The position numbers and the translations under genes were made by a program. Below, one piece after another: positions 31,399-55,988 of a stretch of 64,000 bases of DNA. Source of the stretch: Pseudomonas lalkuanensis (GTDB taxonomy: Bacteria > Pseudomonadota > Gammaproteobacteria > Pseudomonadales > Pseudomonadaceae). Numbering within the stretch: position 1 is the first letter of the stretch; every line of letters starts with the position of its first letter. The stretch covers positions 3,266,001-3,330,000 of the forward strand of contig NZ_CP043311.1 in assembly GCF_008807375.1 (NCBI RefSeq). Reading direction: 5' to 3'. A model generated the notes under the pieces. That model was not told the origin of the DNA, made no database searches, and worked only from the letters and a program-made list of their open reading frames with translations.

Positions 31399-31925
31399 AC
31401 AAGCCCGAATCCCTGCGCACGCACCTGCTGGCCAGCATCCCGGAACTCACCCACAACCCGGAGCGCCTGCTGCTGTTCATCGACAACGGCAAGATCCGCA
31501 GCACGGCAGCAGCCGGCTTCTCCTTCGAATACAGCTACAGCCTCAACCTCATCTTCACCGACTACGCCGGCCACGCCGACGCCATTGCCGTGCCCCTGCT
31601 GGCCTGGCTGCGCGTCCACCAGCCGGAGCTCTTGGCCAACTTCGATAAGGGGAAAGAGGCGATCGCCTTCGAAGCCGATCGCCTCGACAACAGCAAGGTG
31701 GACCTCTCCATCACCCTGCCCCTCACCGAGCGAGTCATCGTCCACCAGCAAGCCGATGGCCGTCTGGAGCTGGACCACCCAGAGGAACCCCAGCTCACCC
31801 CGCACCTGCCCGAAGCGCGCTATGCCCTCTACGACGGCGCCACCCTGCTCGCCGCCTGGACCAGCGCAGCACCCACCGGCGTAGACCTGGAAACACCGCA
31901 CCCGGGGCCTATCCGTGTCCGCTAA
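31395..31925 (+). CDS. Tail completion protein (P2 gpR-like)
   Basis: 176 aa. Begins MNKPESLRTHLLASIPELTH; KIRSTAAAGFSFEYSYSLNL and LPLLAWLRVHQPELL-type segments match gpR, which finishes the head-proximal tail end. Its start overlaps the Rz1 stop and its end overlaps the S start by 11 bases. Confidence 0.92.
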   Translation: MNKPESLRTHLLASIPELTHNPERLLLFIDNGKIRSTAAAGFSFEYSYSLNLIFTDYAGHADAIAVPLLAWLRVHQPELLANFDKGKEAIAFEADRLDNSKVDLSITLPLTERVIVHQQADGRLELDHPEEPQLTPHLPEARYALYDGATLLAAWTSAAPTGVDLETPHPGPIRVR

Positions 31926-32364
31926 CCTCCAGGCCCTGGAAGACTGGGCCGGCGCCCTCCTGGTCAAACTCGGCCCCAGCGAGCGCCGGCGCCTCACCCA
32001 GACCATCGCCCGCGACCTGCGCCGCAGCCAGCAGCAACGCATCGCCAGCCAACGCAACCCGGACGGCAGCGCCTACACCCCGCGCAAACCCCGCAAGCTG
32101 CGCAGCAAGGCCGGCCGCATCCGCCGCAAGATGTTCACCAAGCTGCGCACTGCGCGGCACCTCAAGCTGCAGAGCACCGCCGAGCGCATCGCCATCGGCT
32201 TCCTCGGCCGCACCGCGCGCCTCGCCCGCATTCACCAATACGGCCTGCGCGACCGCCCCGGCCGGCGGGCAGCCGAGGTGCAGTACAGCCAGCGGGAGTT
32301 GTTGGGGTTCAGTGAGGGAGATCTCCAGCGCATTCGAGATCAGCTGCTGGCGCATTTGGCATAA
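31915..32364 (+). CDS. Phage virion morphogenesis protein (P2 gpS-like)
   Basis: 149 aa, GTG start. SANLQALEDWAGALLVKLGP, the Arg/Lys-rich SAYTPRKPRKLRSK and a C-terminal ARIHQYGLRDRP match the gpS tail-completion family. It is the last gene of the head/lysis operon before the first cargo region. Confidence 0.92.
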   Translation: MSANLQALEDWAGALLVKLGPSERRRLTQTIARDLRRSQQQRIASQRNPDGSAYTPRKPRKLRSKAGRIRRKMFTKLRTARHLKLQSTAERIAIGFLGRTARLARIHQYGLRDRPGRRAAEVQYSQRELLGFSEGDLQRIRDQLLAHLA

Positions 32365-33380: not shown

Positions 33381-33698
33381 ATGGCAGTGAACGCCCTCGA
33401 TCAGCTTCGCGACCTCCACGCCCACTTCAGCCTGCTGCGCGGCGCCGACAGCGCCCTGCTCAAGGCCAACAACTTCGACACCAAGCTCAATCACCTCGGC
33501 CACCTGCTGGACGAGCTCGAGCAGCTGCGGGAAACCTACTTCCACCTCACCAGCATCGACGGCGCCCTGGAAATGCTCCTGCAACTCCTCCGCGCCGCCC
33601 ACGCCGAACGCCTCTATGGCGACCACCTCCACTGCCTCATGGAGCCGCTACGCGGGAAGCTGTATCGGGCGTTGAATGAGATGGAGGGGATTATCTAG
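33381..33698 (+). CDS. Small helical phage protein upstream of the antirepressor
   Basis: 105 aa, MAVNALDQLRDLHAHFSLLR, then LDELEQLRETYFHLTSIDGA and a short C-terminus. Predicted all-helical, soluble. GGAG lies 6-9 nt before ATG. It occupies the position of icd in the P1/P7 immI operon (between the C4 site and ant), but I see no sequence similarity and do not assign that function; DUF1484-like proteins are a possible family. Half of it is duplicated at 35199-35354. Confidence 0.7.
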   Translation: MAVNALDQLRDLHAHFSLLRGADSALLKANNFDTKLNHLGHLLDELEQLRETYFHLTSIDGALEMLLQLLRAAHAERLYGDHLHCLMEPLRGKLYRALNEMEGII

Positions 33699-33714
33699 GG
33701 CTGGACCACTACAG

Positions 33715-33745
33715 CCCAACCGTCACCAATTTGGTGATGGTTGGG
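33715..33745. promoter_or_regulatory. Large palindrome upstream of the antirepressor
   Basis: Arms of 15 bp (CCCAACCGTCACCAA and its near inverse) match at 14 of 15 positions around one T. It lies 27 bases before the antirepressor start. Related GGTGA/TCACC palindromes follow at 34609 and 34684. It may be an operator or an mRNA structure limiting translation. Confidence 0.55.
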
Positions 33746-33771
33746 ATAGATCCTCTGCAAGGAGTGCTGCA

Positions 33772-34593
33772 ATGAACAACGCACAACAGCTGATCCCCGT
33801 TCCTTTCTATGAAGACACTGTTGTCCTGGTCGGTCAGGACAACGAGCCATTCGTGGCGATGAAGCCCATCGTCACCAACATGGGGCTGGTTTGGGCTGCT
33901 CAGTACGTGAAGCTCATGGAGCGGTTCAGTTCAACCGTTTCGGAAATCGAAACAGTTGCCGATGATGGCAAGATGCACAGCATGACGTGCATGCCCTTGC
34001 GCAAGCTCCCAGCCTGGCTCTACTCCATCAGCCCGAACAAGGTGAAGCCCGAGCTGCGCGACAAGGTCATCCGCTACCAGGAAGAATGCGACGACGCACT
34101 CTGGGCGTACTGGACCCAAGGCATCGCCCAACGCCCCGGCTCTACCGCCGTCACCCAGCGCATCGCCCTCTCCCGCCACCGTCTAGCCCTGGCCAAGGAA
34201 CTCCACCGCACTCGCGACAAGGCATTGCGCGGAGTCATTCACCAGCAGCTCGACGAAGTCTCCCGCGCCATGGGCCTGCCGACGCCCGAACTGGACAGCC
34301 TCGGTCGCGCCGCTCCGGCTGTACCGGACATACTAAGCACGCTCTGGGATGCCCTGGTACAGCTCGACAAGTTGCAGGTGCCGTATAACCATTCTCGCGA
34401 CCCACAGCTCGTTGCTATCAACCTGTCCCAACTGGCTACGGCTCTACAGCAACACGGCAGCACGCTTCACATCACCCGGGCCCTGACTGACGCCATGCGC
34501 AGCAGCGACTCCCCACGCTTTCTTCGCCACGCTACCGTCAACAGCCGGCTTACCCGCAAAAGCATCAAATGCTGGGTTTTCGAACGAGCTTGA
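33772..34593 (+). CDS. Phage antirepressor, P22_AR_N type
   Basis: 273 aa. The N-terminal 110 residues are the P22 antirepressor domain (VPFYEDTVVLVGQDNEPFVA, MKPIVTNMGLVWAAQYVKLM, LYSISPNKVKPELRDKVIRY). Residues about 185-272 share an unexpected second domain with the C-terminus of the prophage primase-helicase (NHS-x2-P-x-L-x-A-I-N-L at the start, K-C-W-x-F at the end). The protein should inactivate a repressor and so induce the prophage or a co-resident one. It lies downstream of a C4-like RNA target. Start at ATG 33772 with AAGGAG. Confidence 0.85.
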   Translation: MNNAQQLIPVPFYEDTVVLVGQDNEPFVAMKPIVTNMGLVWAAQYVKLMERFSSTVSEIETVADDGKMHSMTCMPLRKLPAWLYSISPNKVKPELRDKVIRYQEECDDALWAYWTQGIAQRPGSTAVTQRIALSRHRLALAKELHRTRDKALRGVIHQQLDEVSRAMGLPTPELDSLGRAAPAVPDILSTLWDALVQLDKLQVPYNHSRDPQLVAINLSQLATALQQHGSTLHITRALTDAMRSSDSPRFLRHATVNSRLTRKSIKCWVFERA

Positions 34594-34608
34594 GATCCCT
34601 AATCCCTT

Positions 34609-34635
34609 CAGTTGTGGTGAACATCACCACAACTG
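34609..34635. promoter_or_regulatory. Perfect palindrome after the antirepressor
   Basis: CAGTTGTGGTGA-ACA-TCACCACAACTG, 12 of 12 pairs, 15 bases after the antirepressor stop. No T-tract follows, so an operator-like role is as likely as termination. The GGTGA core is shared with the palindromes at 33715 and 34684. Confidence 0.55.
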
Positions 34636-34683
34636 CAGCCAGTGCCTGATCCCTCGCACGGGCTCTTAACTGCTGAACCTCCC

Positions 34684-34764
34684 CAACCGTGGTGATGATC
34701 ACCATGGTTGTCGGCACAGAGGTAATTTCGCGCTCCGCAACCGTTTCGAAGATCGAAACCGTTG
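34684..34764. repeat. Two further palindromes, relic of an antirepressor start
   Basis: First palindrome CAACCGTGGTGAT-G-ATCACCATGGTTG (34684-34710); second CAACCGTTTCG-N5-CGAAACCGTTG (34738-34764). The second matches a palindrome inside the antirepressor gene (33932-33958), and translation here gives SATVSKIETV against SSTVSEIETV in the gene, so this is probably a decayed partial copy. Confidence 0.5.
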
Positions 34765-34784
34765 AGGTCACGGACGGCTGGAGT

Positions 34785-35036
34785 TCACTTCTTCGGTCCG
34801 AAGCGCAGGGTAGTTGCGACGATTGCCAGGCCAAGGCCCATGAGGGTGAGCTCAACGACTGGTATTTCTTGGCTCGGCACAGCACGCAAGAACGCGTGCT
34901 CGGCCGGGGGTTCCGCCGAAAACAGATTCTCCGCCCAGATGAGCAGATCCACAGGGATGAAATCCACAACGGGTGAAAGCAGCAGCCCCCCGACAGCAAT
35001 CAACGCAAAACCTACCCACCGTACCCACTTGCTCAT
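34785..35036 (-). CDS. Small membrane protein, 83 aa
   Basis: MSKWVRWVGFALIAVGGLLL begins with a basic residue and a transmembrane helix; a second helix is near the C-terminus (VVELTLMGLGLAIVATTL) before RFGPKK. It runs against the surrounding genes. The ribosome site is weak (GGTGAT). No family recognised; plausible as cargo. Confidence 0.45.
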   Translation of the reverse strand: MSKWVRWVGFALIAVGGLLLSPVVDFIPVDLLIWAENLFSAEPPAEHAFLRAVPSQEIPVVELTLMGLGLAIVATTLRFGPKK

Positions 35037-35198
35037 AGATCACCGTCACGCAACTTCCAATGTCTGATGTGAAAAACCGCCGGAGCGCCAAAACCGGAAA
35101 ATTACCTGCCAGAGCCATGTGTGAAAAGAGGGGAAAAATTGATTTTTCCTCGGTAATGGGGAATTTCCACTTTAACCTTTGCAATGTTCGCTTTTCCC

Positions 35199-35354
35199 AA
35201 CCACATGGGTTACCTGCTGGAAGAGCTGGAACAGCTGCGGGAAACCTACTTCAACCTCACCAGCATCGACGGCGCCCTGGAAATGCTCTTGAAACTCCTC
35301 CGCGCCGCACGCGCCGAACGCCTTTACGGCGACCACCTCAGTTATCACCGCTGA
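35199..35354 (+). pseudogene. Truncated duplicate of the 105-aa gene
   Basis: ATG 35205 to TGA 35354 encodes 49 aa (MGYLLEELEQLRETYFNLTS...), over 80% identical to residues 38-85 of the gene at 33381-33698. The 5' half is absent and the frame ends early in unrelated sequence. It marks a duplication flanking the antirepressor. Translation as a short protein is not excluded. Confidence 0.6.
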
Positions 35355-35488: not shown

Positions 35489-37513
35489 TCATCGAAGCTC
35501 ATCAATAGGTGTACGAGCAACAAAATTAATCACCCTTTCAACCGGCCATACTTTCTCAAGGGGGGTCCCCATTTTTACCACCTCCCCAGTAGATAAAACT
35601 TCATGTGTAGCAACAAATGAAATTCCCGCCTGCCCTTCATCCACAACTAGGCAAGGTGGTTGTATCCTCCCGATCCCCATTCCGCCAAAGAAATAGCTCT
35701 TCCCCTCCGCCCGCTTAATAGAAAACATATCTTCGACTTTCTTCCTGGCCTTACCGTGAGCAACCAAACAGGTAAGAGGAGGCATGTTAACTATTTCACC
35801 CAATAGAGATCGAACGGAATCACCATCTTGGACATCCAGATAGTCTTTAAACAAAAATAGTGAGCGCACGGGATTAGCTGATACTTCATATACAGTCTTC
35901 CCCCTTTCACTCTCAGGCAGTAGGTCACCGCTAGATATAGCTCTATTCTTGAGAGTAGCCGCCTTTGCATTAATCGCGAGCGACAACTGCAACGCCGCCT
36001 CATTCGTTACAGCCGGAGTTGCCTGAGAAGTCCCACTCATTGCAACAATTTCTTTAGAATTAGATATCCAAGATCTAACTTCACAACCGGGAGCCGCCAT
36101 ATCAACAGCATTTTGACCGACGTTACTAAACTTCGTCAGTTTATGCTTTCCATCTATAGCCGCAACGGTAATTACATTTGGAACACCTGCCCCACCCAGC
36201 GCCGCAGGTATAATCGCCTTGTCCACCACATCTTTACCTACATCATTACCTGCCGCCACAACAAACAATGTGTTCTCGGCAAGAGAAAATAGATTTTGGT
36301 AGTTATTTCTCACATTGCGATCCAGCAATCCATCGTGCGTAATTGATAGATTTACCACCCGATAGCGATTATCATCACGCAACTGCGCAAGCAATAGCTC
36401 GTGAGAGCCCTTAATCAAACTCCTGGCCCCCAGACCAATATTTATAATTGCAATAGACGCCCATGGCTCTGATCGCATCCGATCAAAGTACGGCTCTAGA
36501 TCTGGCCCACCGAGTACAATACCAGTAACATGAGTTCCGTGCCCACTTTCTAAATCGGGCTTTAGGCCATAACTGTAATTAATTGGCTGAAGAACCTTAT
36601 CGAGTCTAATCACCTGAGCTAAAGTATATTCAGAGTCAGCCTTGAAATATTTTCTACGGAAAGGACTTCCATCGAAAGCCTTATCTGCAGGAGTATTAGA
36701 AAGAGCACCGAAGAAACCATTATCAACGATTGCAATATTTGCTCGCCCGCCGTCGACATTGATATCTTCGTCCTCCGAAAGCTCTTTAGAAAACCTGTAA
36801 GCTTCATAGACGGCTTTGGCATTCATGGGTGCAGATGGAGTTTCGCAGTCATCGCTGGCCGCTATTTCTCCAGTTGACATTCCCATCACTATTTCCCCTT
36901 CAACACTGCGAGCTTCACGAACCGTCAACCCCTGCGGGTCGATTCGGCGAAACTCCTCAATCAGTGCTTCACTACCGGGCCGTATAGGCAATGAAACTGG
37001 TAGTGACACTGCAGCAATTGGAAGCTCTTTCCCCGGCTTCAACTTACTGAGGTCTTCAATAGGTTCCCCAAAAAACTCTACCAACTCTGATTCAGTGCCT
37101 CCGCCGCCAGTCTTCATTCGGTACAAACCGTACGCAGTGTCTCCAGTGCGCACCGTAACCCGCGCCGCATCGAAGGGCTTAAAGTAATACAGGCATGCCG
37201 GAAGCGGTATCTCACCCTCTTCAAGAGGGCCATCAAGACCAGATTTTTTGAATTCAGGCTTATCTTTTATTAACTCAATATAAGACTCTGTGACGCCACC
37301 ACACTGTCGAACAATTAACTCCCTAAAAGTTACACCTGACGCAACTCGAACGATGACGGGCTGCGCGATTTTATCGATCAATTGTGCGATCTCTGGCGAG
37401 GGCTCACTGACAGCCCGAACCGTCAGTATTTTCTCATCATCCCCAGAGGCAGCCATGCCATAACCAGAAGTCAATAATATTCCCAATGCAATACTACGAT
37501 CTAGAATCTGCAT
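35489..37513 (-). CDS. Exported subtilisin-like (S8) serine protease
   Basis: 674 aa, markedly AT-richer than its neighbours. A signal sequence is present (MQILDRSIALGILLTSGYGM, cleavage near AAS). The S8 domain lies at about 255-520 with the whole triad: Asp264 (IAIVDNGFFG), His325 (SGHGTHVTG), Ser496 (SGTSQATP) and oxyanion Asn423 (VVAAGND). The first 230 residues and the last 150 are unassigned. The start overlaps the end of the S1-type protease gene by 13 bases, so both are made from one mRNA. Expected site of action is the periplasm or outside the cell. Not part of any P2 virion gene set; horizontally acquired cargo. Confidence 0.85.
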   Translation of the reverse strand: MQILDRSIALGILLTSGYGMAASGDDEKILTVRAVSEPSPEIAQLIDKIAQPVIVRVASGVTFRELIVRQCGGVTESYIELIKDKPEFKKSGLDGPLEEGEIPLPACLYYFKPFDAARVTVRTGDTAYGLYRMKTGGGGTESELVEFFGEPIEDLSKLKPGKELPIAAVSLPVSLPIRPGSEALIEEFRRIDPQGLTVREARSVEGEIVMGMSTGEIAASDDCETPSAPMNAKAVYEAYRFSKELSEDEDINVDGGRANIAIVDNGFFGALSNTPADKAFDGSPFRRKYFKADSEYTLAQVIRLDKVLQPINYSYGLKPDLESGHGTHVTGIVLGGPDLEPYFDRMRSEPWASIAIINIGLGARSLIKGSHELLLAQLRDDNRYRVVNLSITHDGLLDRNVRNNYQNLFSLAENTLFVVAAGNDVGKDVVDKAIIPAALGGAGVPNVITVAAIDGKHKLTKFSNVGQNAVDMAAPGCEVRSWISNSKEIVAMSGTSQATPAVTNEAALQLSLAINAKAATLKNRAISSGDLLPESERGKTVYEVSANPVRSLFLFKDYLDVQDGDSVRSLLGEIVNMPPLTCLVAHGKARKKVEDMFSIKRAEGKSYFFGGMGIGRIQPPCLVVDEGQAGISFVATHEVLSTGEVVKMGTPLEKVWPVERVINFVARTPIDELR

Positions 37514-38478
37514 TGTCTTTCCCCTGCCTCAAAGTTAATTCCACACGCCTCCGGTTTAAATCTTTCATTCCTTGACAACCAATCTTGCGCCCATGAGCGG
37601 AAAGCATCGGTTCCAGTGGCTGAAATTCGTGAAATAAATACCCCCTCAACGGCAGCTATACTTGAATTAACACCTCTAATTCTTCGAACATTGTCTGTAT
37701 CCTGCGCGGTGATGCCGGACAATAACGGGCCACCAGAGTCCCCAGGACATAATGCTGGTTCAACACCTGCAACTGATTTTATTGTGACGTAGGAAGCTCG
37801 TCCTGGCGACGACCCTGCCGGCTTATCAATGACCCCGTCACCTATCCTTAGATAGCCATCCCACTGGCCTGCCTTGGGCATTCCATTCACGACCCTCAAA
37901 TCTTTACAACCATATCCAGTCATTACCACCTTACTGCCGTGAACCAGCACCCCGTCATCATCTACAACTTCGTACTTCATTGTTTTGAGCTGCTGAGGAC
38001 GTTCCCCACCGTCATCCAAAATACACAACGCAAAATCTTCACTACTACGAGGAGAGAGCCCCATCAAAGGTTCTTTAGAGTAGTCAGGATGCATGTCGCA
38101 ATTCATTTTAAGAGTACGATTTCCAATCCTCAAGGATGCAAGTAAAGGCTTACCATTCTCAACTTGTGGATCAACGCAATGGGCAGCTGTTAAAACCACA
38201 TTTGGCCCGATCAAGGATGCCGTGCAGCTAGATATCCGCCCCCCTCCATTTTGGTTCGAAAATCTTGCAATTATGAGTGCGGGCCAGTCTGCTGCCCTAA
38301 CAACAATGCCATTTGCAAGCTGAATCTCGGACTGAGCAAGAACTTCCGACGCAAGCTCAAACTCTACGATTGGAGCCGCGTTTTGCCGTTCTTCGGCCGA
38401 GGCATTTCCAATAAATAATCCAAACAGCGAAGCTGCAAAAGCCAGAGAGTTCTGAATAATTTTCCTAGAGTTCTTCAT
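37501..38478 (-). CDS. Exported trypsin-like (S1) serine protease
   Basis: 325 aa. Signal peptide MKNSRKIIQNSLAFAASLFG with cleavage after NASA (residue 28). The triad is complete: His100 (LTAAHC), Asp148 (EDFALC) and Ser248 (CPGDSGGP). Six or more Cys in the mature part fit periplasmic disulfides. AT-rich like the S8 gene. No transmembrane anchor beyond the signal. It could activate the S8 proprotein or be activated by it; neither is shown. Divergent from a lipoprotein gene at 38644. Confidence 0.88.
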   Translation of the reverse strand: MKNSRKIIQNSLAFAASLFGLFIGNASAEERQNAAPIVEFELASEVLAQSEIQLANGIVVRAADWPALIIARFSNQNGGGRISSCTASLIGPNVVLTAAHCVDPQVENGKPLLASLRIGNRTLKMNCDMHPDYSKEPLMGLSPRSSEDFALCILDDGGERPQQLKTMKYEVVDDDGVLVHGSKVVMTGYGCKDLRVVNGMPKAGQWDGYLRIGDGVIDKPAGSSPGRASYVTIKSVAGVEPALCPGDSGGPLLSGITAQDTDNVRRIRGVNSSIAAVEGVFISRISATGTDAFRSWAQDWLSRNERFKPEACGINFEAGERQCRF

Positions 38479-38643
38479 CGCTCTGTTTCCATGGAGTGAT
38501 TAACATTGACTTTTTAGTCTTTCCTGAACTGCAAGACGTCGACCGACTAACCCACGCTCCGCATTTGGCGGGCAGATTTCACTATAGCTGCTACCATGAC
38601 GATGATGGCAACGTGCCCTCACTTTTCAGCTAAGGATTAGCCC
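38479..38643. promoter_or_regulatory. Divergent promoter region of the protease/lipoprotein module
   Basis: 165 AT-rich bases between the S1 protease and the lipoprotein. The dyad GACT-TTTT-AGTC near 38509-38520 is a possible operator. Promoters for both directions must lie here; exact boxes were not assigned. Confidence 0.4.
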
Positions 38644-39378
38644 ATGAAAAAGCATCTATTGACCTCCTTGGGATTGCTGCTAGCGTTAAGCGGTTGCGCC
38701 ACGGTAAATGAAAGCTGGGCGCCCTTTCCGACGAAAGACGAGTTGATCTCGTTCAATGATCAATGGGCAGTAGCCACAAAGGCTGGTAACCGCAGCGTCT
38801 TCGACCTGCAGCGAGAGCTAGGGAAGTATCGCGACAGGATTTATCAGCAAGCGCTGGAGCGCAGTAAACTTAATTGGGAGTCAACAGGAGCGACCACTTA
38901 TGGTGGATTGGCCGCGGTCATTGGCGGACTCGCAGACCAGACGGGGCTCATGAACTCTGGGGCAGGCCTGGCTGCACTCGGGCTTACAAACTCGACCCGG
39001 TACAGATTCTCCGAACAAACGCAGATCTATGTGACCGCATTAAAAAAGCTATCGTGCATACAAGGAAAGGTTAATGCCATGGATGACCTTACGCTTTCCT
39101 TAGCCAAACGTTCGAGCGACCCGGCTGCGCAGAGTGCGGCAAATCACTTCATAGATAAGGTGATAACGAGTGTGGACGCTGTTCGTGCTGAGTATACGAA
39201 TGCGTTGCTCGGAATGGCTCCAGTCGTCTCGTCGAACGACGAGCTGAAGGCCATAGCTCGTCAATATCTTCAAACCACTGTCGCAGTCGCTGCAACGGAT
39301 GATCCTGAACAAAAAATGTACGACAAAGCGGGTGAGACAGCTATTGAATTGGTAGTAGGGATTCAGAGTTGCACTTGA
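38644..39378 (+). CDS. Lipoprotein divergent from the protease pair
   Basis: 244 aa. Signal with lipobox LALSGC, Cys18 the lipidation site (next residue Ala, so outer-membrane sorting is possible). The mature part is mostly helical (FNDQWAVATKAGNRSVFDLQ, then a Gly/Ala-rich stretch TTYGGLAAVIGGLADQTGLM). AAGGAT lies before the ATG. No family recognised. Its position suggests an immunity, receptor-blocking or protease-partner role. Confidence 0.75.
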   Translation: MKKHLLTSLGLLLALSGCATVNESWAPFPTKDELISFNDQWAVATKAGNRSVFDLQRELGKYRDRIYQQALERSKLNWESTGATTYGGLAAVIGGLADQTGLMNSGAGLAALGLTNSTRYRFSEQTQIYVTALKKLSCIQGKVNAMDDLTLSLAKRSSDPAAQSAANHFIDKVITSVDAVRAEYTNALLGMAPVVSSNDELKAIARQYLQTTVAVAATDDPEQKMYDKAGETAIELVVGIQSCT

Positions 39379-39455: not shown

Positions 39456-40022
39456 ATGGACAGCCTCGCCGAACTCACCCGCCGCCTCGATAACCTGATC
39501 CGCCTCGGCACCATCGCCGAGGTGGACCACGCCGCCGCCCGTTGTCGGGTGAAGAGCGGTCGCCTGCTCACCACCTGGTTACCCTGGGTCGCCCTGCGCG
39601 CCGGCACCACGCTGGACTGGAACCCGCCCACCGTGGGCGAGCAGTGCGTGCTGTTCAGCCCCAGCGGCGAGACCACCCAGGCCCTGGTCCTGGTCGGCCT
39701 CTACAGCGAAGCCAACCCCGCCCCGGAAAAGAGCGCCAGCCTGCACCGTCGCCAGTACCCGGACGGCGCCATCATCGACTACGACCACGGCAGCAGCGCC
39801 CTCACCGCCACCCTGCCGGGTGGCGCCACTGTCGTGCTGGAAGCCTCCGGTGGCGTGACCATCGAGGGCGATGTGACGGTGAACGGCATGCTCAAGGTGT
39901 CCGGCGATGCGAAGATCGACGGCACCGCCACGGCCAACGTGGACGTGATCGGCGCCAACAAGAGCCTGTTGAAGCACCTGCACCTGGGCAACCTCGGCGC
40001 GCCTACGAGTCCGCCGCTATGA
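39456..40022 (+). CDS. Baseplate assembly protein V (spike)
   Basis: 188 aa. OB-fold N-terminal part (AEVDHAAARCRVKSGRLLTT, GEQCVLFSPSGETTQALVL) followed by the beta-helical spike region (VTIEGDVTVNGMLKVSGDAK). Ends HLHLGNLG. gpV forms the trimeric membrane-piercing needle. First gene of the tail operon; its stop overlaps W (ATGA). Confidence 0.93.
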   Translation: MDSLAELTRRLDNLIRLGTIAEVDHAAARCRVKSGRLLTTWLPWVALRAGTTLDWNPPTVGEQCVLFSPSGETTQALVLVGLYSEANPAPEKSASLHRRQYPDGAIIDYDHGSSALTATLPGGATVVLEASGGVTIEGDVTVNGMLKVSGDAKIDGTATANVDVIGANKSLLKHLHLGNLGAPTSPPL

Positions 40023-41280: not shown

Positions 41281-41836
41281 ACTGCTGCCGCCCAACAGCA
41301 CCGCCCTGGAACATCGGCTGGCTGACGGGCAACGACACATCAGCGAGCTGCCGGTAGCCATTCGGCACCTCCGCAATCCGGCTACCTGCCCGGCCCCGTT
41401 GCTGCCCTTCCTCGCCTGGGAGCTGTCGGTGGACGAGTGGAACCCCGACTGGGGTGAAGACGTGAAGCGCCGGGTGATCGCCGACAGCGTCCGCGTGCAT
41501 CGCCGCAAGGGCACGCGCGGAGCCGTGCGGCGGGCGCTGGAAGCCATCTTCGGCGCCGACGGATTCCTCATCGTCGAAGGCGTCGCAGCCGGTTACTACG
41601 ACGGCGGCAAGGCCCACAACGAGCTGCATTTCTACGGCCTGGACGAGCACTGGGCCGTGTACAGCGTGCTGCTCCGGCAACCGATCACCCTGCAGCAGGC
41701 AGCCGAAGTGCGCCGCGTGCTGGCCCAGGTCGCCCCCGCCCGCTGCGAGCTGCTGGCCCTGAACTACGAACGCGCCTCGCACCGCTACGACGGCGAGAAC
41801 CGCTACGACAACACCTACTCCCATGGAGTCGCGTAA
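41273..41836 (+). CDS. Tail protein I
   Basis: 187 aa. P2 gpI family: SELLPPNSTALEHRLADGQR, CPAPLLPFLAWELSVDEWNP, RRKGTRGAVRRALEAI. Baseplate wedge component joining fibres to J. The stop shares its last base with the H start codon. Confidence 0.94.
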   Translation: MSELLPPNSTALEHRLADGQRHISELPVAIRHLRNPATCPAPLLPFLAWELSVDEWNPDWGEDVKRRVIADSVRVHRRKGTRGAVRRALEAIFGADGFLIVEGVAAGYYDGGKAHNELHFYGLDEHWAVYSVLLRQPITLQQAAEVRRVLAQVAPARCELLALNYERASHRYDGENRYDNTYSHGVA

Positions 41837-43437
41837 TGGCACACCTGCCCGAACAGCCTGACTTCGAGGAAGGCATCTATCAGATCGAACGCACCGACCC
41901 AGTAGTCGGCGGCGTGGAAGGCATTTCCAACCGGCAGGCACGCCAGCTGGGCAACCGCACCCAATGGCTCCGCCAGGCCATCGAACAGGTCATCAAGGGC
42001 GCGCAAGTGGTCGCCAAGGCCACACGGTTGGCAAGCGCACGCAAGTTCCGCTTCGAGGGAGATGCCAGCGGTGAGGTCAGTTTCGATGGCAGCACCGACG
42101 TGGCCATCTCCCTGACACTGGCAGATAGCGGCATAAAACCTGCCACATACGCAGTGGCCAGATTCAACGCCAAAGGCCTCGCCATCGGCGGCCGTGGCCT
42201 GCAGGTGGATGATCTGCCCGGCTTGCCCTGGGCCAAGATCACCAGTGGCAAGCCCACCACGCTGGCCGGCTACGGCATCACCGACGCTCTACCGTCCGGC
42301 TCGTTCACCTGGGCAAGCCTCCCTGGCAAACCATCGGCCTATCCGCCCGCCAGCCATACCCATGCCTGGAACCAGATCACAGCCAAACCCACCACACTGG
42401 CGGGCTATGGCATCACCGACGCGCTGGCTGCCGGCGCTTTCACCTGGTCGGGGCTGCCCGGCAAGCCGTCAACCTTTCCACCAGCTGACCACACCCATGC
42501 CTGGGGCCAGATCACTGGCAAACCCAGCACATTGGCAGGCTATGGCATTACCGATGCCTTTCCGCGCGCCGGCGGAGTGTTCAGTGGCACCATCATCCCC
42601 CGGCTATCCGAAGGTCCGGTGGGTCAGGCCTACAACCGAGATTTCGTCGGCTTTGAGCTTCGCGGCGTCGCCGATGCAGCAGCATTCATGGCCTTTCACC
42701 GGGTAGGCAACTACGCCCTGTTCCTGGGCCTGGACGTCGACAACAAGCTCAAGATCGGCGGCTGGTCCATGGGCGCCCGCGCCTACGAACTGGTCCATGA
42801 GGGCAATAGCCACCTGTTCACCGGCGCGCCAGGCCAGGTCGCGGCCTTTGCCGGAGCCCTGCCGCCCGCCGGCTGGCTCAAGGCAAACGGTGCGGCGGTG
42901 AGCCGCGCAACCTACGCCCGCCTTTTCGCGGCCATCGGCACCTTCTATGGCGAGGGCGATGGCAAATCCACCTTCAATCTGCCGGACTTGCGCGGCGAAT
43001 TCATTCGCGGCTGGGACGACGCCCGCGGACTGGACACTAACCGGGCACTCGGCAGCATCCAGGCCCCCATGCTCGGTAGCCATGGCCACACCGCGACGGC
43101 TGCCATCGACGGAGCCCACGCCCACACCATCAGCGGTTCCGCCGCAGGCGTCAGTACCTCATACCTGAGCCAGGTCCGACAGGTGGCGGGAGGGGCTGCC
43201 GCTGCGATAGGCATCCCAACTCTCGGCGAGTCTGCCGCTGGCGTGATGGTCGATGGCCACTCCATCTCCGGCCCCTATGCTTTGCGCTTCACCAACAGCC
43301 CGATGGCCCACGCCCACGACGTCGGCGGTACCGCCATCGCCGCCGGCGCCCACAGCCACGCCATCACCGTGAATGCCAACGGCGGCCACGAAACCCGCCC
43401 GCGCAACGTCGCCCTGCTCCACTGCATCAAGTACTGA
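41836..43437 (+). CDS. Tail fibre protein (gpH-like) with repeats
   Basis: 533 aa. The N-terminus (PEQPDFEEGIYQIERTDPVV) is the P2-type baseplate attachment. Residues about 134-245 hold two and a half copies of a repeat of about 45 aa (KPTTLAGYGITDAL, then LPGKPS-x2-PPA-x-HTHAW). The C-terminal 180 residues contain the phage tail-collar domain (NLPDLRGEFIRGWDDARGLD) and several H-A-H-T/H-S-H motifs, typical receptor-binding tips. It determines host range. Confidence 0.92.
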   Translation: MAHLPEQPDFEEGIYQIERTDPVVGGVEGISNRQARQLGNRTQWLRQAIEQVIKGAQVVAKATRLASARKFRFEGDASGEVSFDGSTDVAISLTLADSGIKPATYAVARFNAKGLAIGGRGLQVDDLPGLPWAKITSGKPTTLAGYGITDALPSGSFTWASLPGKPSAYPPASHTHAWNQITAKPTTLAGYGITDALAAGAFTWSGLPGKPSTFPPADHTHAWGQITGKPSTLAGYGITDAFPRAGGVFSGTIIPRLSEGPVGQAYNRDFVGFELRGVADAAAFMAFHRVGNYALFLGLDVDNKLKIGGWSMGARAYELVHEGNSHLFTGAPGQVAAFAGALPPAGWLKANGAAVSRATYARLFAAIGTFYGEGDGKSTFNLPDLRGEFIRGWDDARGLDTNRALGSIQAPMLGSHGHTATAAIDGAHAHTISGSAAGVSTSYLSQVRQVAGGAAAAIGIPTLGESAAGVMVDGHSISGPYALRFTNSPMAHAHDVGGTAIAAGAHSHAITVNANGGHETRPRNVALLHCIKY

Positions 43438-53885: not shown

Positions 53886-53917
53886 GCCAATTTGCCAATT
53901 TGCCAATTTGCCAATTT
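53886..53917. repeat. Four tandem copies of GCCAATTT
   Basis: Perfect 8-bp tandem repeat, four units, 50 bases upstream of the membrane protein start. Four-fold octamer repeats can change in number by slippage and so alter promoter spacing or frame. Confidence 0.85.
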
Positions 53918-53967
53918 TTCTACCTTACACATTCTCTCCAACAACGCACCTCAGAAGATCAAATCTT

Positions 53968-55008
53968 ATGTACAACCTAAGTGACGCCACAATAGAAAGC
54001 TTGATCAGCAAATTAACAACAATCCACAACAGCAGTGAAACAGACGAAAAAACCAAATTTCTTTCCAGCCAGATTTTGGAGGCAATCAAAACAGAACACA
54101 ATCACCCAGTTATGAAGGTCTCAGAGGACTTTATAAGTAAAGAGTCCATAAAAGACCACCAAGGGAAAATCCTAGAAATTCTACAGTCAGACCTTCAATC
54201 TGAATCAGTCGCCAATCTTCATCTAATTCTTGCCCGAACGTATCGCGAGGCCGCGCTCCGAGGCGGGCACATTTTCAACAATTTCAAAATTGTAACTTAC
54301 TACCTAAAGCACGAAGATAGCGATACAGAACAAGAAAAAGTAGATGAAATACGCTTCGAGATCGCAAACAAGATAATTAGCGAAGACAATATCGAGGCAA
54401 TCAAAACAATCAACGACCACAACAAAAACATAGAATCATGGAGTGACCGCCTAGCAGAATGGGGAAAAAAAGCAGCGGAGCTAGAAAAATCACTGAGAAT
54501 TTCTGCATCAAACGCAAATTTTCTAATTCTTTCAGAATCATTTTCTGAAATGCTAAAAGCGAAAACAACAGAAAAATACTACAGCTTCATATCCATGATA
54601 TTACTTGGAGCCCTTGCAATATCAATTCCTATCTGGCAGTTACTGCACCCCAATGAATCCATCGCCAGCGCAGCTGTAACTAATGGATTTGACATCTCCC
54701 TAGCAACCAAAATCTCAATGACAATAATCCTAGAAGCATTGACACTTTATTTCTTCAGAATCGCCTTACACCAATGGAATTCAATAAAATCACAAATCAT
54801 CCAACTAGAACTAAGAAAGTCTCTCTGCCAGTTCATAATCAATTACTCAGAATTCGCCCAATCCGCAAACAAAGACTCACTTGGAAAATTTGAAAACTTA
54901 ATATTCAGCGAAATAACAAGAGACCCTACAAACACTCCCAATGTATTCGACGCCGCAGAGTCCATTTCAAAGGTAATATCAAACCTTAAAAGCCAGCCTT
55001 CAAAATAA
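53968..55008 (+). CDS. AT-rich membrane protein with coiled-coil cytoplasmic part
   Basis: 346 aa. Residues 1-200 are helical and charged, with coiled-coil character at about 145-180 (HNKNIESWSDRLAEWGKKAA). Two transmembrane helices follow at 206-226 and 246-266, then a helical C-terminus (FENLIFSEITRDPTNTPNVF). Base composition is far AT-richer than the phage genes, so it was acquired separately. ATG 53968; the frame opens at TTG 53908 inside the tandem repeat. No family assigned. A membrane effector of a phage-defence module is possible. Confidence 0.7.
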   Translation: MYNLSDATIESLISKLTTIHNSSETDEKTKFLSSQILEAIKTEHNHPVMKVSEDFISKESIKDHQGKILEILQSDLQSESVANLHLILARTYREAALRGGHIFNNFKIVTYYLKHEDSDTEQEKVDEIRFEIANKIISEDNIEAIKTINDHNKNIESWSDRLAEWGKKAAELEKSLRISASNANFLILSESFSEMLKAKTTEKYYSFISMILLGALAISIPIWQLLHPNESIASAAVTNGFDISLATKISMTIILEALTLYFFRIALHQWNSIKSQIIQLELRKSLCQFIINYSEFAQSANKDSLGKFENLIFSEITRDPTNTPNVFDAAESISKVISNLKSQPSK

Positions 55009-55157
55009 TCTTCATATAGAGCAACAGCGCGCGGAGGGCGGATCATCACACACTGGAGACATGCTCAAGCCGCGCGAGCTTTTATATGCTCAGAACGACA
55101 GAATAACCATCGCTCCGAAGCGATCTTCTGAGCCCTTACCAAGACCATATTAAATCT

Positions 55158-55186
55158 GCCTTCAAGGGGTTCCGGTGAAGGCTTTT
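55158..55186 (+). terminator. Terminator between the convergent membrane genes
   Basis: GCCTTCA-N11-TGAAGGC followed by TTTT. It lies about 150 bases after the plus-strand membrane gene. Confidence 0.55.
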
Positions 55187-55268
55187 GAGTGACTTCAGTT
55201 GCAGCCCTCAAGCTATGGGAACAAGAAAATAGATCTGCACCTTCCTCGCGCCCTCTTCCCTTAAATAT

Positions 55269-55988
55269 TCAAATAAGAGCAACTACGGCAAGAGAAAATG
55301 AAAGCCCAGACAAAATCACAGGAAGAACAAAATCGGAAAACCAGCGCTCAAATATGACAACATACACAATAGAGAAAAACCTGGACGAAACCGAAACAAA
55401 AATTGAAGGAGAAATCTCAATGTCGAAATCACCCGAGAAACTAAAATGCTTCATATCTACAGTATAACGACAAACATACGTAATGGCCGCAGTAAATCCA
55501 AGCCTATCCCTAATAACATCTTTTAGCTTTTCTCGCTCAAACTCCGTCATTCCATCATTAACACCAAATGCATATAAATATTCCGGCCTCGGCTCCCACC
55601 GCCAATATACTTTTGCCACAGGTTGCCGCGGAAGATTATTAGGCTCTGGAAATGCTCCCTTTTCCTTTACCATTCGCACAATCTTTTTTTTGGAGCCACG
55701 CACACTCATTTTGTAAGCAATGACATCGCGAATAGAGAGATAGCGATTAACCATCACATCAGATGGAGACTCAACCATCTGAATAAACCGCGCAAACTTA
55801 TAAACTAGAAAAACGATCAAAACCAGCCAAACATCTTTATGCCCAGGAACCGTTTGCACCTCAGTTCCAAATAAATTTATAGATTCAATCTTGTCATGAA
55901 AAACATAAAAAATCAGCATGCCACATGCAATTAACAACAGGCTCTTGCGCGCCTTTGAGAACTCATCATCCTCAAACATTTCAGACAT
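55269..55988 (-). CDS. AT-rich membrane protein, converging on the previous one
   Basis: 239 aa. Two N-terminal transmembrane helices (about 15-32 and 50-68), a soluble loop (VRGSKKKIVRMVKEKGAFPE, YWRWEPRPEYLYAFGVNDGM) and a hydrophobic C-terminus (about 205-239). Same AT-rich composition as 53968-55008, so the two were probably gained together. No family assigned. It is transcribed in the same direction as the repressor gene upstream and may be expressed in the lysogen. Confidence 0.65.
   Translation of the reverse strand: MSEMFEDDEFSKARKSLLLIACGMLIFYVFHDKIESINLFGTEVQTVPGHKDVWLVLIVFLVYKFARFIQMVESPSDVMVNRYLSIRDVIAYKMSVRGSKKKIVRMVKEKGAFPEPNNLPRQPVAKVYWRWEPRPEYLYAFGVNDGMTEFEREKLKDVIRDRLGFTAAITYVCRYTVDMKHFSFSGDFDIEISPSIFVSVSSRFFSIVYVVIFERWFSDFVLPVILSGLSFSLAVVALI

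What the first reader, a model, noticed from the sequence alone, without database searches (positions are those of the whole stretch)
35489..39378. Exported trypsin/subtilisin pair with divergent lipoprotein as prophage cargo
Two overlapping, AT-rich genes encode a secreted S1 protease (triad His100/Asp148/Ser248) and a secreted S8 protease (Asp264/His325/Ser496). Opposite them is a lipoprotein. They sit between S and V, where P2 carries variable cargo (orf30). Neither virion assembly nor lysis of P2-like phages needs such enzymes. A periplasmic two-protease cascade with a membrane-anchored partner could block incoming phage, cleave receptors or tail proteins, or alter the envelope of the lysogen. 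I know of no described defence or conversion system with this composition.
Basis: partly seen in the sequence, partly recalled or inferred. Interest (0 to 1): 0.75.

Follow-up and report, generated by a model that had tools for sequence, protein, structure and literature searches.

The report
Exported two-protease envelope module in prophage
A virus dormant in a Pseudomonas-like bacterium carries two probably exported protein-cutting enzymes and a membrane-anchored partner; the enzyme pair recurs in scattered bacteria with different partners, so it looks like an undescribed envelope module that may guard the cell, though its function is untested.

Summary
An S8 subtilase (35489-37513, -) and an S1 protease (37501-38478, -), both with signal-peptide-like starts, overlap by 13 nt; a lipoprotein (38644-39378, +) faces them. 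They lie between tail genes S and V of a P2-like prophage, a spot that differs between related phages.

The S1-S8 pair is a real unit: 19 of 22 loci with a full S1 match have S8 directly downstream, against 0 of 86 weaker trypsin loci. The third gene changes: this lipoprotein family in a few loci; elsewhere other lipoproteins, an amidohydrolase, a tyrosinase or a RoxA-like cytochrome c. S8 carries a LysM-like stretch, so it is probably held in the periplasm. S1 keeps a zymogen layout but lacks trypsin's Asp189. No family library or paper search showed a system of this composition.

Best reading (0.4): an envelope proteolytic switch acting on a swappable exported partner; here the helical glycine-rich lipoprotein would be the membrane effector. 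Phage defence is plausible but not shown: only two P2-like prophages were found to carry it, and defence-gene neighbours are only suggestive. Novelty: new variant of a known kind. Interest 0.6.

The parts
35489..37513 (-). S8 subtilase, probably exported, 674 aa: N-terminal region with LysM-like stretch, propeptide-like part, catalytic domain (D264/H325/N423/S496), C-terminal beta domain
37013..37159 (-). LysM-like stretch of S8 (about residues 119-167)
   Evidence: HHalign probability 94%, E 1.3e-7 against 8 LysM rows from the same genome; column-reversed control none; strand, three helices, strand in the model
37501..38478 (-). S1 peptidase, probably exported, 325 aa, triad H100/D148/S248, eight cysteines; overlaps S8 by 13 nt
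38320..38394 (-). putative S1 propeptide (about residues 29-53); mature start inferred at Leu54 after Gln53
   Evidence: position 54 is L/V/M in 32 of 32 rows, Gln53 in 21 of 32, Asp247 in 32 of 32; activation itself is inferred
38479..38643 (.). 165-bp divergent intergenic region between S1 and the lipoprotein; no promoter-like match inside it in the simple scan
38644..39378 (+). lipoprotein LP, 244 aa, modelled as helical, no Pfam or fold match
38893..38997 (+). conserved Gly-rich, nearly uncharged stretch of LP (residues 84-118), low model confidence
   Evidence: mean hydropathy +0.71 over 30 rows and 5% charged residues, against -0.05 (30 rows) and -0.92 (27 rows) for the two other stretches taken; pLDDT below 50 at 82-119
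31915..32364 (+). S-like tail completion gene, left anchor of the cargo site
39456..40022 (+). V-like baseplate assembly gene, right anchor of the cargo site

Best explanation
An envelope proteolytic switch with a swappable exported partner, carried here as prophage cargo. Shown: two intact serine proteases with signal-peptide-like N-termini encoded as one unit; the unit is conserved; S8 has a LysM-like stretch; the gene next to the pair varies; the cargo is under purifying selection (one pairwise comparison). Inferred: both proteases go to the periplasm, S8 being held at peptidoglycan; S1 is made as a zymogen that is cut before Leu54 by another protease, S8 being the obvious candidate; once active, the pair cuts the co-encoded partner. 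In this phage that partner is the glycine-rich helical lipoprotein, whose nearly uncharged stretch could then insert in or disturb a membrane. The likely benefit is to the lysogen when its envelope is attacked, for instance by a competing phage or another bacterium.
For: Pairing: 19 of 22 distinct loci with S1 profile score of 70 bits or more have S8 directly downstream on the same strand; 0 of 86 weaker loci do, 67 of which had at least 2 kb downstream. The 70-bit line was drawn after seeing the scores. Partner swapping, within about 2 kb of the pair, each couple of loci sharing a homologous partner: LP in window and Ramlibacter L004 (56%), a lipoprotein in L151 and L163, two genomes of one genus of the window's family (42%), amidohydrolase in L005 and L006 (40%), RoxA-like cytochrome c in L011 and L164 (39%), DUF1353-like lipoprotein in L010 and L102 (34%), lipoprotein in L008 and L017 (31% over 154 aa), tyrosinase in L008 and L111 (23%). 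LysM-like stretch. Zymogen layout and non-trypsin pocket: Ala at position 189 in 30 of 32 rows. Closest folds of S8 include, besides ordinary subtilisins, pro-forms and processing enzymes such as SUB1, S1P, EpiP and pro-subtilisin. dN/dS 0.10 (S8), 0.15 (S1), 0.10 (LP) against the G011 prophage. Defence genes within about 7 kb of some loci: type II methyltransferase at L102 and PD-Lambda-2_B at L155, LmuB at L017 with a LmuA match that I take to be the gene before it, and a HerA match that I take, from its sequence, to be L111 15100-16368.
Against: No activity, cleavage, localisation or phenotype was tested. The LP model is weak (mean pLDDT 69.7) with no fold match at E 0.001 or better. No phage record matched S1. 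One LP-like gene (L154, E 5.3e-5) has no S1 or S8 in its 18 kb; the local LP profile did not recover that gene at E 0.01, so even the likeness is weak. The LP-like gene of L102 (E 2.9e-4) fell below the line. L012, L085 and L086 have S1 without S8. The partner could be an anchor or inhibitor rather than a substrate. The control set for defence neighbours was taxonomically unmatched and also gave PADLOC matches (4 of 140 proteins to PD-T4-6 models).
Confidence: 0.4

Rival explanations
1. Maturation module without a defence role: the protease pair trims and activates whichever exported partner is encoded beside it, for envelope remodelling or metabolism, and came onto this phage as a passenger.
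For: Partners elsewhere include enzymes (tyrosinase, amidohydrolase, RoxA-like cytochrome c) rather than toxins; 16 of 22 loci came from genome or plasmid records. That some tyrosinases are made as proteolytically activated precursors is recalled, not from a call.
Against: Patchy spread (3 of 398 genomes of the family with a strong S1 match; 2 of 318 of one genus with a strong S8 match) and cargo position in a phage fit conflict genes better than housekeeping; several loci have next to the pair only lipoproteins of no known activity.
Confidence: 0.25
2. Direct superinfection exclusion: the periplasmic proteases themselves degrade incoming phage tail or ejection proteins or a host receptor, and LP is only an anchor or adaptor.
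For: Prophage cargo in a variable site; LysM-like stretch; intact triads under purifying selection.
Against: None of 50,697 phage records matched S1 at E 1e-5 and only three matched S8, over at most 34% of it, so it is not a common phage strategy; the partner swapping is not explained.
Confidence: 0.2
3. Ordinary secreted proteases for nutrition or antagonism outside the cell.
For: Both families are common among secreted proteases (recalled); the best PDB sequence matches are extracellular enzymes such as deseasin and elastase.
Against: LysM-like stretch, fixed pairing, exported partners beside the pair, conserved N-terminal region.
Confidence: 0.1

Closest known systems
IetAS (IetS is an S8 subtilase, with an AAA ATPase; composition recalled)
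   Same: a subtilase in a candidate defence setting; weak IetS match (0.0011; the best PADLOC match is a model named only subtilase, 1.2e-4)
   Different: far below the NCBIfam cut-off (12.8 bits against 900); no ATPase beside it; signal-peptide-like start; paired with S1
Avs1 (AVAST type 1; its ATPase recalled)
   Same: protease of trypsin-like fold; weak Avs1b match (0.0012)
   Different: 12.8 bits against a cut-off of 1500; no STAND ATPase beside it; signal-peptide-like start
Trypco/VMAP and STAND conflict systems with trypsin-like or S8 peptidases (passages of PMC10907252; PMC7159879 seen in the listing only)
   Same: proteases as effectors in conflict loci
   Different: those are built on STAND NTPase or MoxR cores; none is encoded beside this pair
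Bacterial gasdermins (recalled; review PMC10989679 seen in the listing only)
   Same: works like: a protease beside a membrane-acting partner
   Different: LP is a lipoprotein with no Pfam match; the proteases have signal-peptide-like starts
Dentilisin complex of Treponema denticola (PMC8167434 seen in the listings only; lipoprotein partners recalled)
   Same: subtilase with lipoprotein partners; the PrtP model weakly matches S8 (1.1e-9)
   Different: 37.5 bits against a cut-off of 300; no S1 partner (recalled)
P2-like phage cargo hotspots (passages of PMC9122126)
   Same: small variable locus between conserved phage genes
   Different: the E. coli site described there lies between gpA and gpQ near cos; this one lies between S and V

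Membership tests
MEROPS S1 / Pfam Trypsin | His-Asp-Ser triad and Trypsin profile above cut-off | tested here: met
   48.9 bits against 20.6; H100, D148, S248
MEROPS S1 / Pfam Trypsin | trypsin specificity (Asp at chymotrypsin position 189) | tested here: not met
   Ala242 at that place, in 30 of 32 rows; position counted back from the GDSGG motif
Pfam Peptidase_S8 | Asp-His-Ser triad and profile above cut-off | tested here: met
   91.3 bits against 21.8; D264, H325, S496
LysM domain (in S8) | Pfam LysM above cut-off | tested here: not met
   1 of 31 members matched, E 0.088
LysM domain (in S8) | profile-profile similarity over the whole domain | tested here: met
   probability 94%, E 1.3e-7, reversed control none; hence called LysM-like
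LysM domain (in S8) | strand-helix-helix-strand order (recalled) | tested here: inconclusive
   model shows strand, three helices (the third of 5 residues), strand
IetAS | IetS above cut-off and adjacent AAA ATPase | tested here: not met
   12.8 bits against 900; adjacent genes are S1, an 83-aa ORF and LP
Avs1 | Avs1b above cut-off with STAND ATPase | tested here: not met
   12.8 bits against 1500
Bacterial gasdermin system | gasdermin-fold partner | tested here: inconclusive
   no Pfam match, no fold match, but the model is weak
P2-like prophage cargo | insertion between conserved phage genes, variable among relatives | tested here: met
   between S and V: nothing in D14A, no separate gene in AP3, one gene in Dobby, two in Sirocco
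Anti-phage defence system | reduces phage plating | not testable with these tools
   needs an experiment

The most novel reading that the evidence does not exclude
A bacterial zymogen cascade in the periplasm: S8 activates S1 (or the reverse), and the active pair fires one of several interchangeable exported effectors, including tyrosinase, cytochrome, amidohydrolase and membrane-active lipoproteins. It would be a bacterial analogue of the serine-protease to phenoloxidase cascade of invertebrate immunity (recalled), and phages carry it as conversion cargo against competitors.
Probability: 0.15. Interest if true: 0.92.

Novelty: new variant of a known kind. Interest (0 to 1): 0.6.

Why it matters
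Most described bacterial immune proteases act in the cytoplasm (recalled). A conserved protease pair built for the periplasm, with exchangeable partners, would show that proteolytic triggering also guards the envelope, where phages first meet the cell. The partner list gives concrete substrates to test, and the S1-S8 signature lets the module be found elsewhere.

Tried and rejected
Rejected: S8 as IetS and S1 as Avs1b (both far below cut-offs). Rejected: SLBB for the S8 N-terminus (6 of 31 members, best 4.9e-5; in the window's protein E 0.053 at residues 49-76, below cut-off). The part before the LysM-like stretch (residues 48-108) gave only 2.8% probability for LysM, and the part after it 0.4%. 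Single-sequence LysM search of 70 S8 N-termini: five proteins below E 0.01 with weak single domains, none among shuffled ones. Led nowhere: fold search of the lipoprotein in PDB and BFVD; phage records for S1; promoter and terminator scan (no more sites than in shuffles); paper searches, whose listings showed no paper on this module (the library lacks most subscription journals). The viral scan with the single S1 protein found nothing; with the alignment it found 13 loci, of which only L084 is close. My lipobox pattern also flagged the L009 S8 and one ORF inside the L111 S1, so it has false positives. PADLOC neighbour test: 141 of 146 neighbour ORFs of 17 loci (the five largest dropped to fit the size limit) against 140 of 255 control ORFs, from 13 of 22 control loci, mostly Myxococcota or other former Deltaproteobacteria; the control matched 33 families, the 25 listed being mostly PD-T4-6 and others that I recall as protein-kinase models. 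Only 25 of the 77 case families were listed; the DrmD and mads_3 matches were not traced to loci. The ten proteins were picked because they or their loci looked interesting and are not an unbiased sample; 4 of the 10 matched something at E 0.001.
Full report
WHAT IS THERE. The window is 64 kb of a 6.06-Mb single-contig genome. A P2-like prophage lies in it: portal and terminase on the minus strand at 23.5-26.2 kb, then scaffold, spanin, tail terminator, tail completion, baseplate and late tail genes on the plus strand (the letter names R, S, V, J are mine, by order and recall). Between S (31915-32364) and V (39456-40022) GC falls to 46-50%. There sit an S8 subtilase (35489-37513, -) and an S1 protease (37501-38478, -) that overlap by 13 nt, and a lipoprotein LP (38644-39378, +) facing them.

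CARGO SITE. In related phages the space between S and V differs: nothing in D14A, no separate gene in AP3 (a hypothetical ORF overlapping V is annotated), one hypothetical gene in Dobby, two minus-strand genes in Sirocco. G011, whose contig length equals that given for the Pseudomonas sp. TCU-HL1 protein, has a related prophage: 95% identical over 23.5-30.8 kb and 87% over 35.5-40.7 kb, which holds the cargo and V. It has no match for 33.7-35.2 kb, where the window has an anti-repressor-like gene bracketed by a 142-nt direct repeat. Synonymous divergence is higher in S8 and S1 (0.54, 0.46) than in LP, V, O-like scaffold and portal (0.14-0.19; R-like 0.35), which suggests that the protease alleles were exchanged by recombination; dN/dS is 0.10, 0.15 and 0.10 for S8, S1 and LP. 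The E. coli P2 hotspot described in PMC9122126 lies elsewhere, between gpA and gpQ (passages read).

THE PAIR IS A UNIT. Profiles from 32 S1 and 31 S8 sequences were run over every locus in hand. Twenty-two distinct loci score 70 bits or more for S1; 19 have S8 directly downstream on the same strand. The misses are L012, L085 and L086. Of 86 weaker loci none has S8 beside it, 67 of them with at least 2 kb of downstream sequence; twelve duplicate or fragment loci were left out. The cut was set after looking. The unit is rare and patchy in the draws made: strong S1 matches (E below 1e-79) in 3 of 398 genomes of the family, 11 of 398 counting weak ones; strong S8 matches in 2 of 318 of one genus. 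Among 398 genomes of the phylum, 134 have some subtilase match, but of the matches listed only the window's own is full-length; the next, G508, turned out to be a divergent pair. None of 50,697 phage records matched S1; a plasmid of Rhizobium rhizogenes has a distant pair. Of the 22 loci, two are P2-like prophages (window, G011), four are contigs that IMG/VR classes as viral (L085, L086, L101, L102) and 16 come from genome or plasmid records, not tested one by one for prophages.

THE PARTNER CHANGES. Other loci have other genes within about 2 kb: a lipoprotein shared by two genomes of one genus of the window's family (L151, L163), one shared by two Sphingomonas loci (L008, L017), a DUF1353-like lipoprotein (L010, L102), an Amidohydro_2 protein (L005, L006), tyrosinase (L008, L111), RoxA-like cytochrome c (L011, L164). 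My lipobox pattern found a lipoprotein near 8 of the 15 loci scanned (L004, L009, L010, L011, L102, L111, L151, L155), with false positives; those of L007, L008 and L017 missed the pattern and were recognised by eye; L163 and L164 were not scanned. One LP-like gene (L154) has no S1 or S8 in its 18 kb and was not recovered by the local profile; a candidate defence protein (PDC-S06) lies about 3 kb away.

ANATOMY. The S8 model is good (mean pLDDT 87.1). Residues 119-167 match LysM by profile comparison (probability 94%, E 1.3e-7; column-reversed control none), though Pfam's own LysM model does not reach its cut-off and the model shows three helices where LysM has two. The nearest solved folds include pro-forms of subtilisins and processing enzymes beside ordinary subtilisins. 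S1 keeps Asp194 (D247) and a hydrophobic residue at the presumed mature N-terminus (L/V/M at 54 in 32 of 32), preceded by Gln in 21 of 32, with Ala at position 189 in 30 of 32. So it looks like a zymogen that would not activate itself by trypsin specificity; positions were read from the sequence motifs, not from a structure. LP is predicted helical with a Gly-rich, nearly uncharged stretch at 84-118 that is conserved but modelled with low confidence; no fold match.

HOW IT MOST LIKELY WORKS. I commit, at 0.4, to an envelope proteolytic switch: the pair, held in the periplasm, cuts its co-encoded partner; here that would free or alter a membrane-active lipoprotein. Shown: gene content, pairing, partner swapping, LysM-like stretch, selection in one pairwise comparison. 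Inferred: localisation, order of activation, partner as substrate, benefit to the lysogen. Rivals are a maturation module without a defence role (0.25), direct superinfection exclusion (0.2) and ordinary secreted proteases (0.1).

DEFENCE LINK. Within about 7 kb of the pair, L102 has a type II methyltransferase and L155 a PD-Lambda-2_B match, L017 has LmuB with a LmuA match that I take to be the gene before it, and a HerA match is, by its sequence, L111 15100-16368. The control set also gave matches, four proteins to PD-T4-6 models that I recall as kinases, and comes mostly from other phyla, so this is a lead, not proof. Against it, the neighbours of L151 look by eye like ordinary chromosomal genes.

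NOVELTY. No match in Pfam, NCBIfam, PHROGs or PADLOC for these three proteins describes the set, and ten paper searches listed no paper on it; most subscription papers are not in that library. It works like protease-triggered effector systems but is not a member of IetAS or Avs1.

Noticed in passing
window 33488-33629 and 35198-35339: A 142-nt direct repeat (89%) brackets an anti-repressor-like gene (33676-34593) and an 83-aa ORF (34785-35036); the G011 prophage has no match for 33698-35198.
   Followed up: partly
window 53908-55988: A second AT-rich stretch (GC 0.39-0.42 at 54-56 kb) with a 366-aa protein matching phrog_9373 (unknown function) and a 239-aa protein with hydrophobic segments on the other strand; another candidate cargo site.
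   Followed up: no
L154 9100-10368: A 422-aa lipoprotein-like protein with weak LP likeness (E 5.3e-5), without S1 or S8, about 3 kb from a PDC-S06 candidate defence gene; by eye, an ORF further on has a P-loop.
   Followed up: partly
L102 5064-9944: In a contig classed as viral: weakly LP-like lipoprotein, S1, a protein with S1-like and S8 parts, and a DUF1353-like lipoprotein in a row, about 2 kb from a type II DNA methyltransferase.
   Followed up: partly
L017 12850-19997: A lipoprotein follows the S1-S8 pair, and LmuB (with a presumed LmuA before it) lies 4-5 kb further on.
   Followed up: partly
L085 9866-10741 and L086 1684-2652: S1 relatives without S8 in contigs classed as viral; possibly a phage use of the S1 protein alone.
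   Followed up: no
window 42249-42518: A 135-nt tandem duplication (76%) inside ORF 41836-43437.
   Followed up: no
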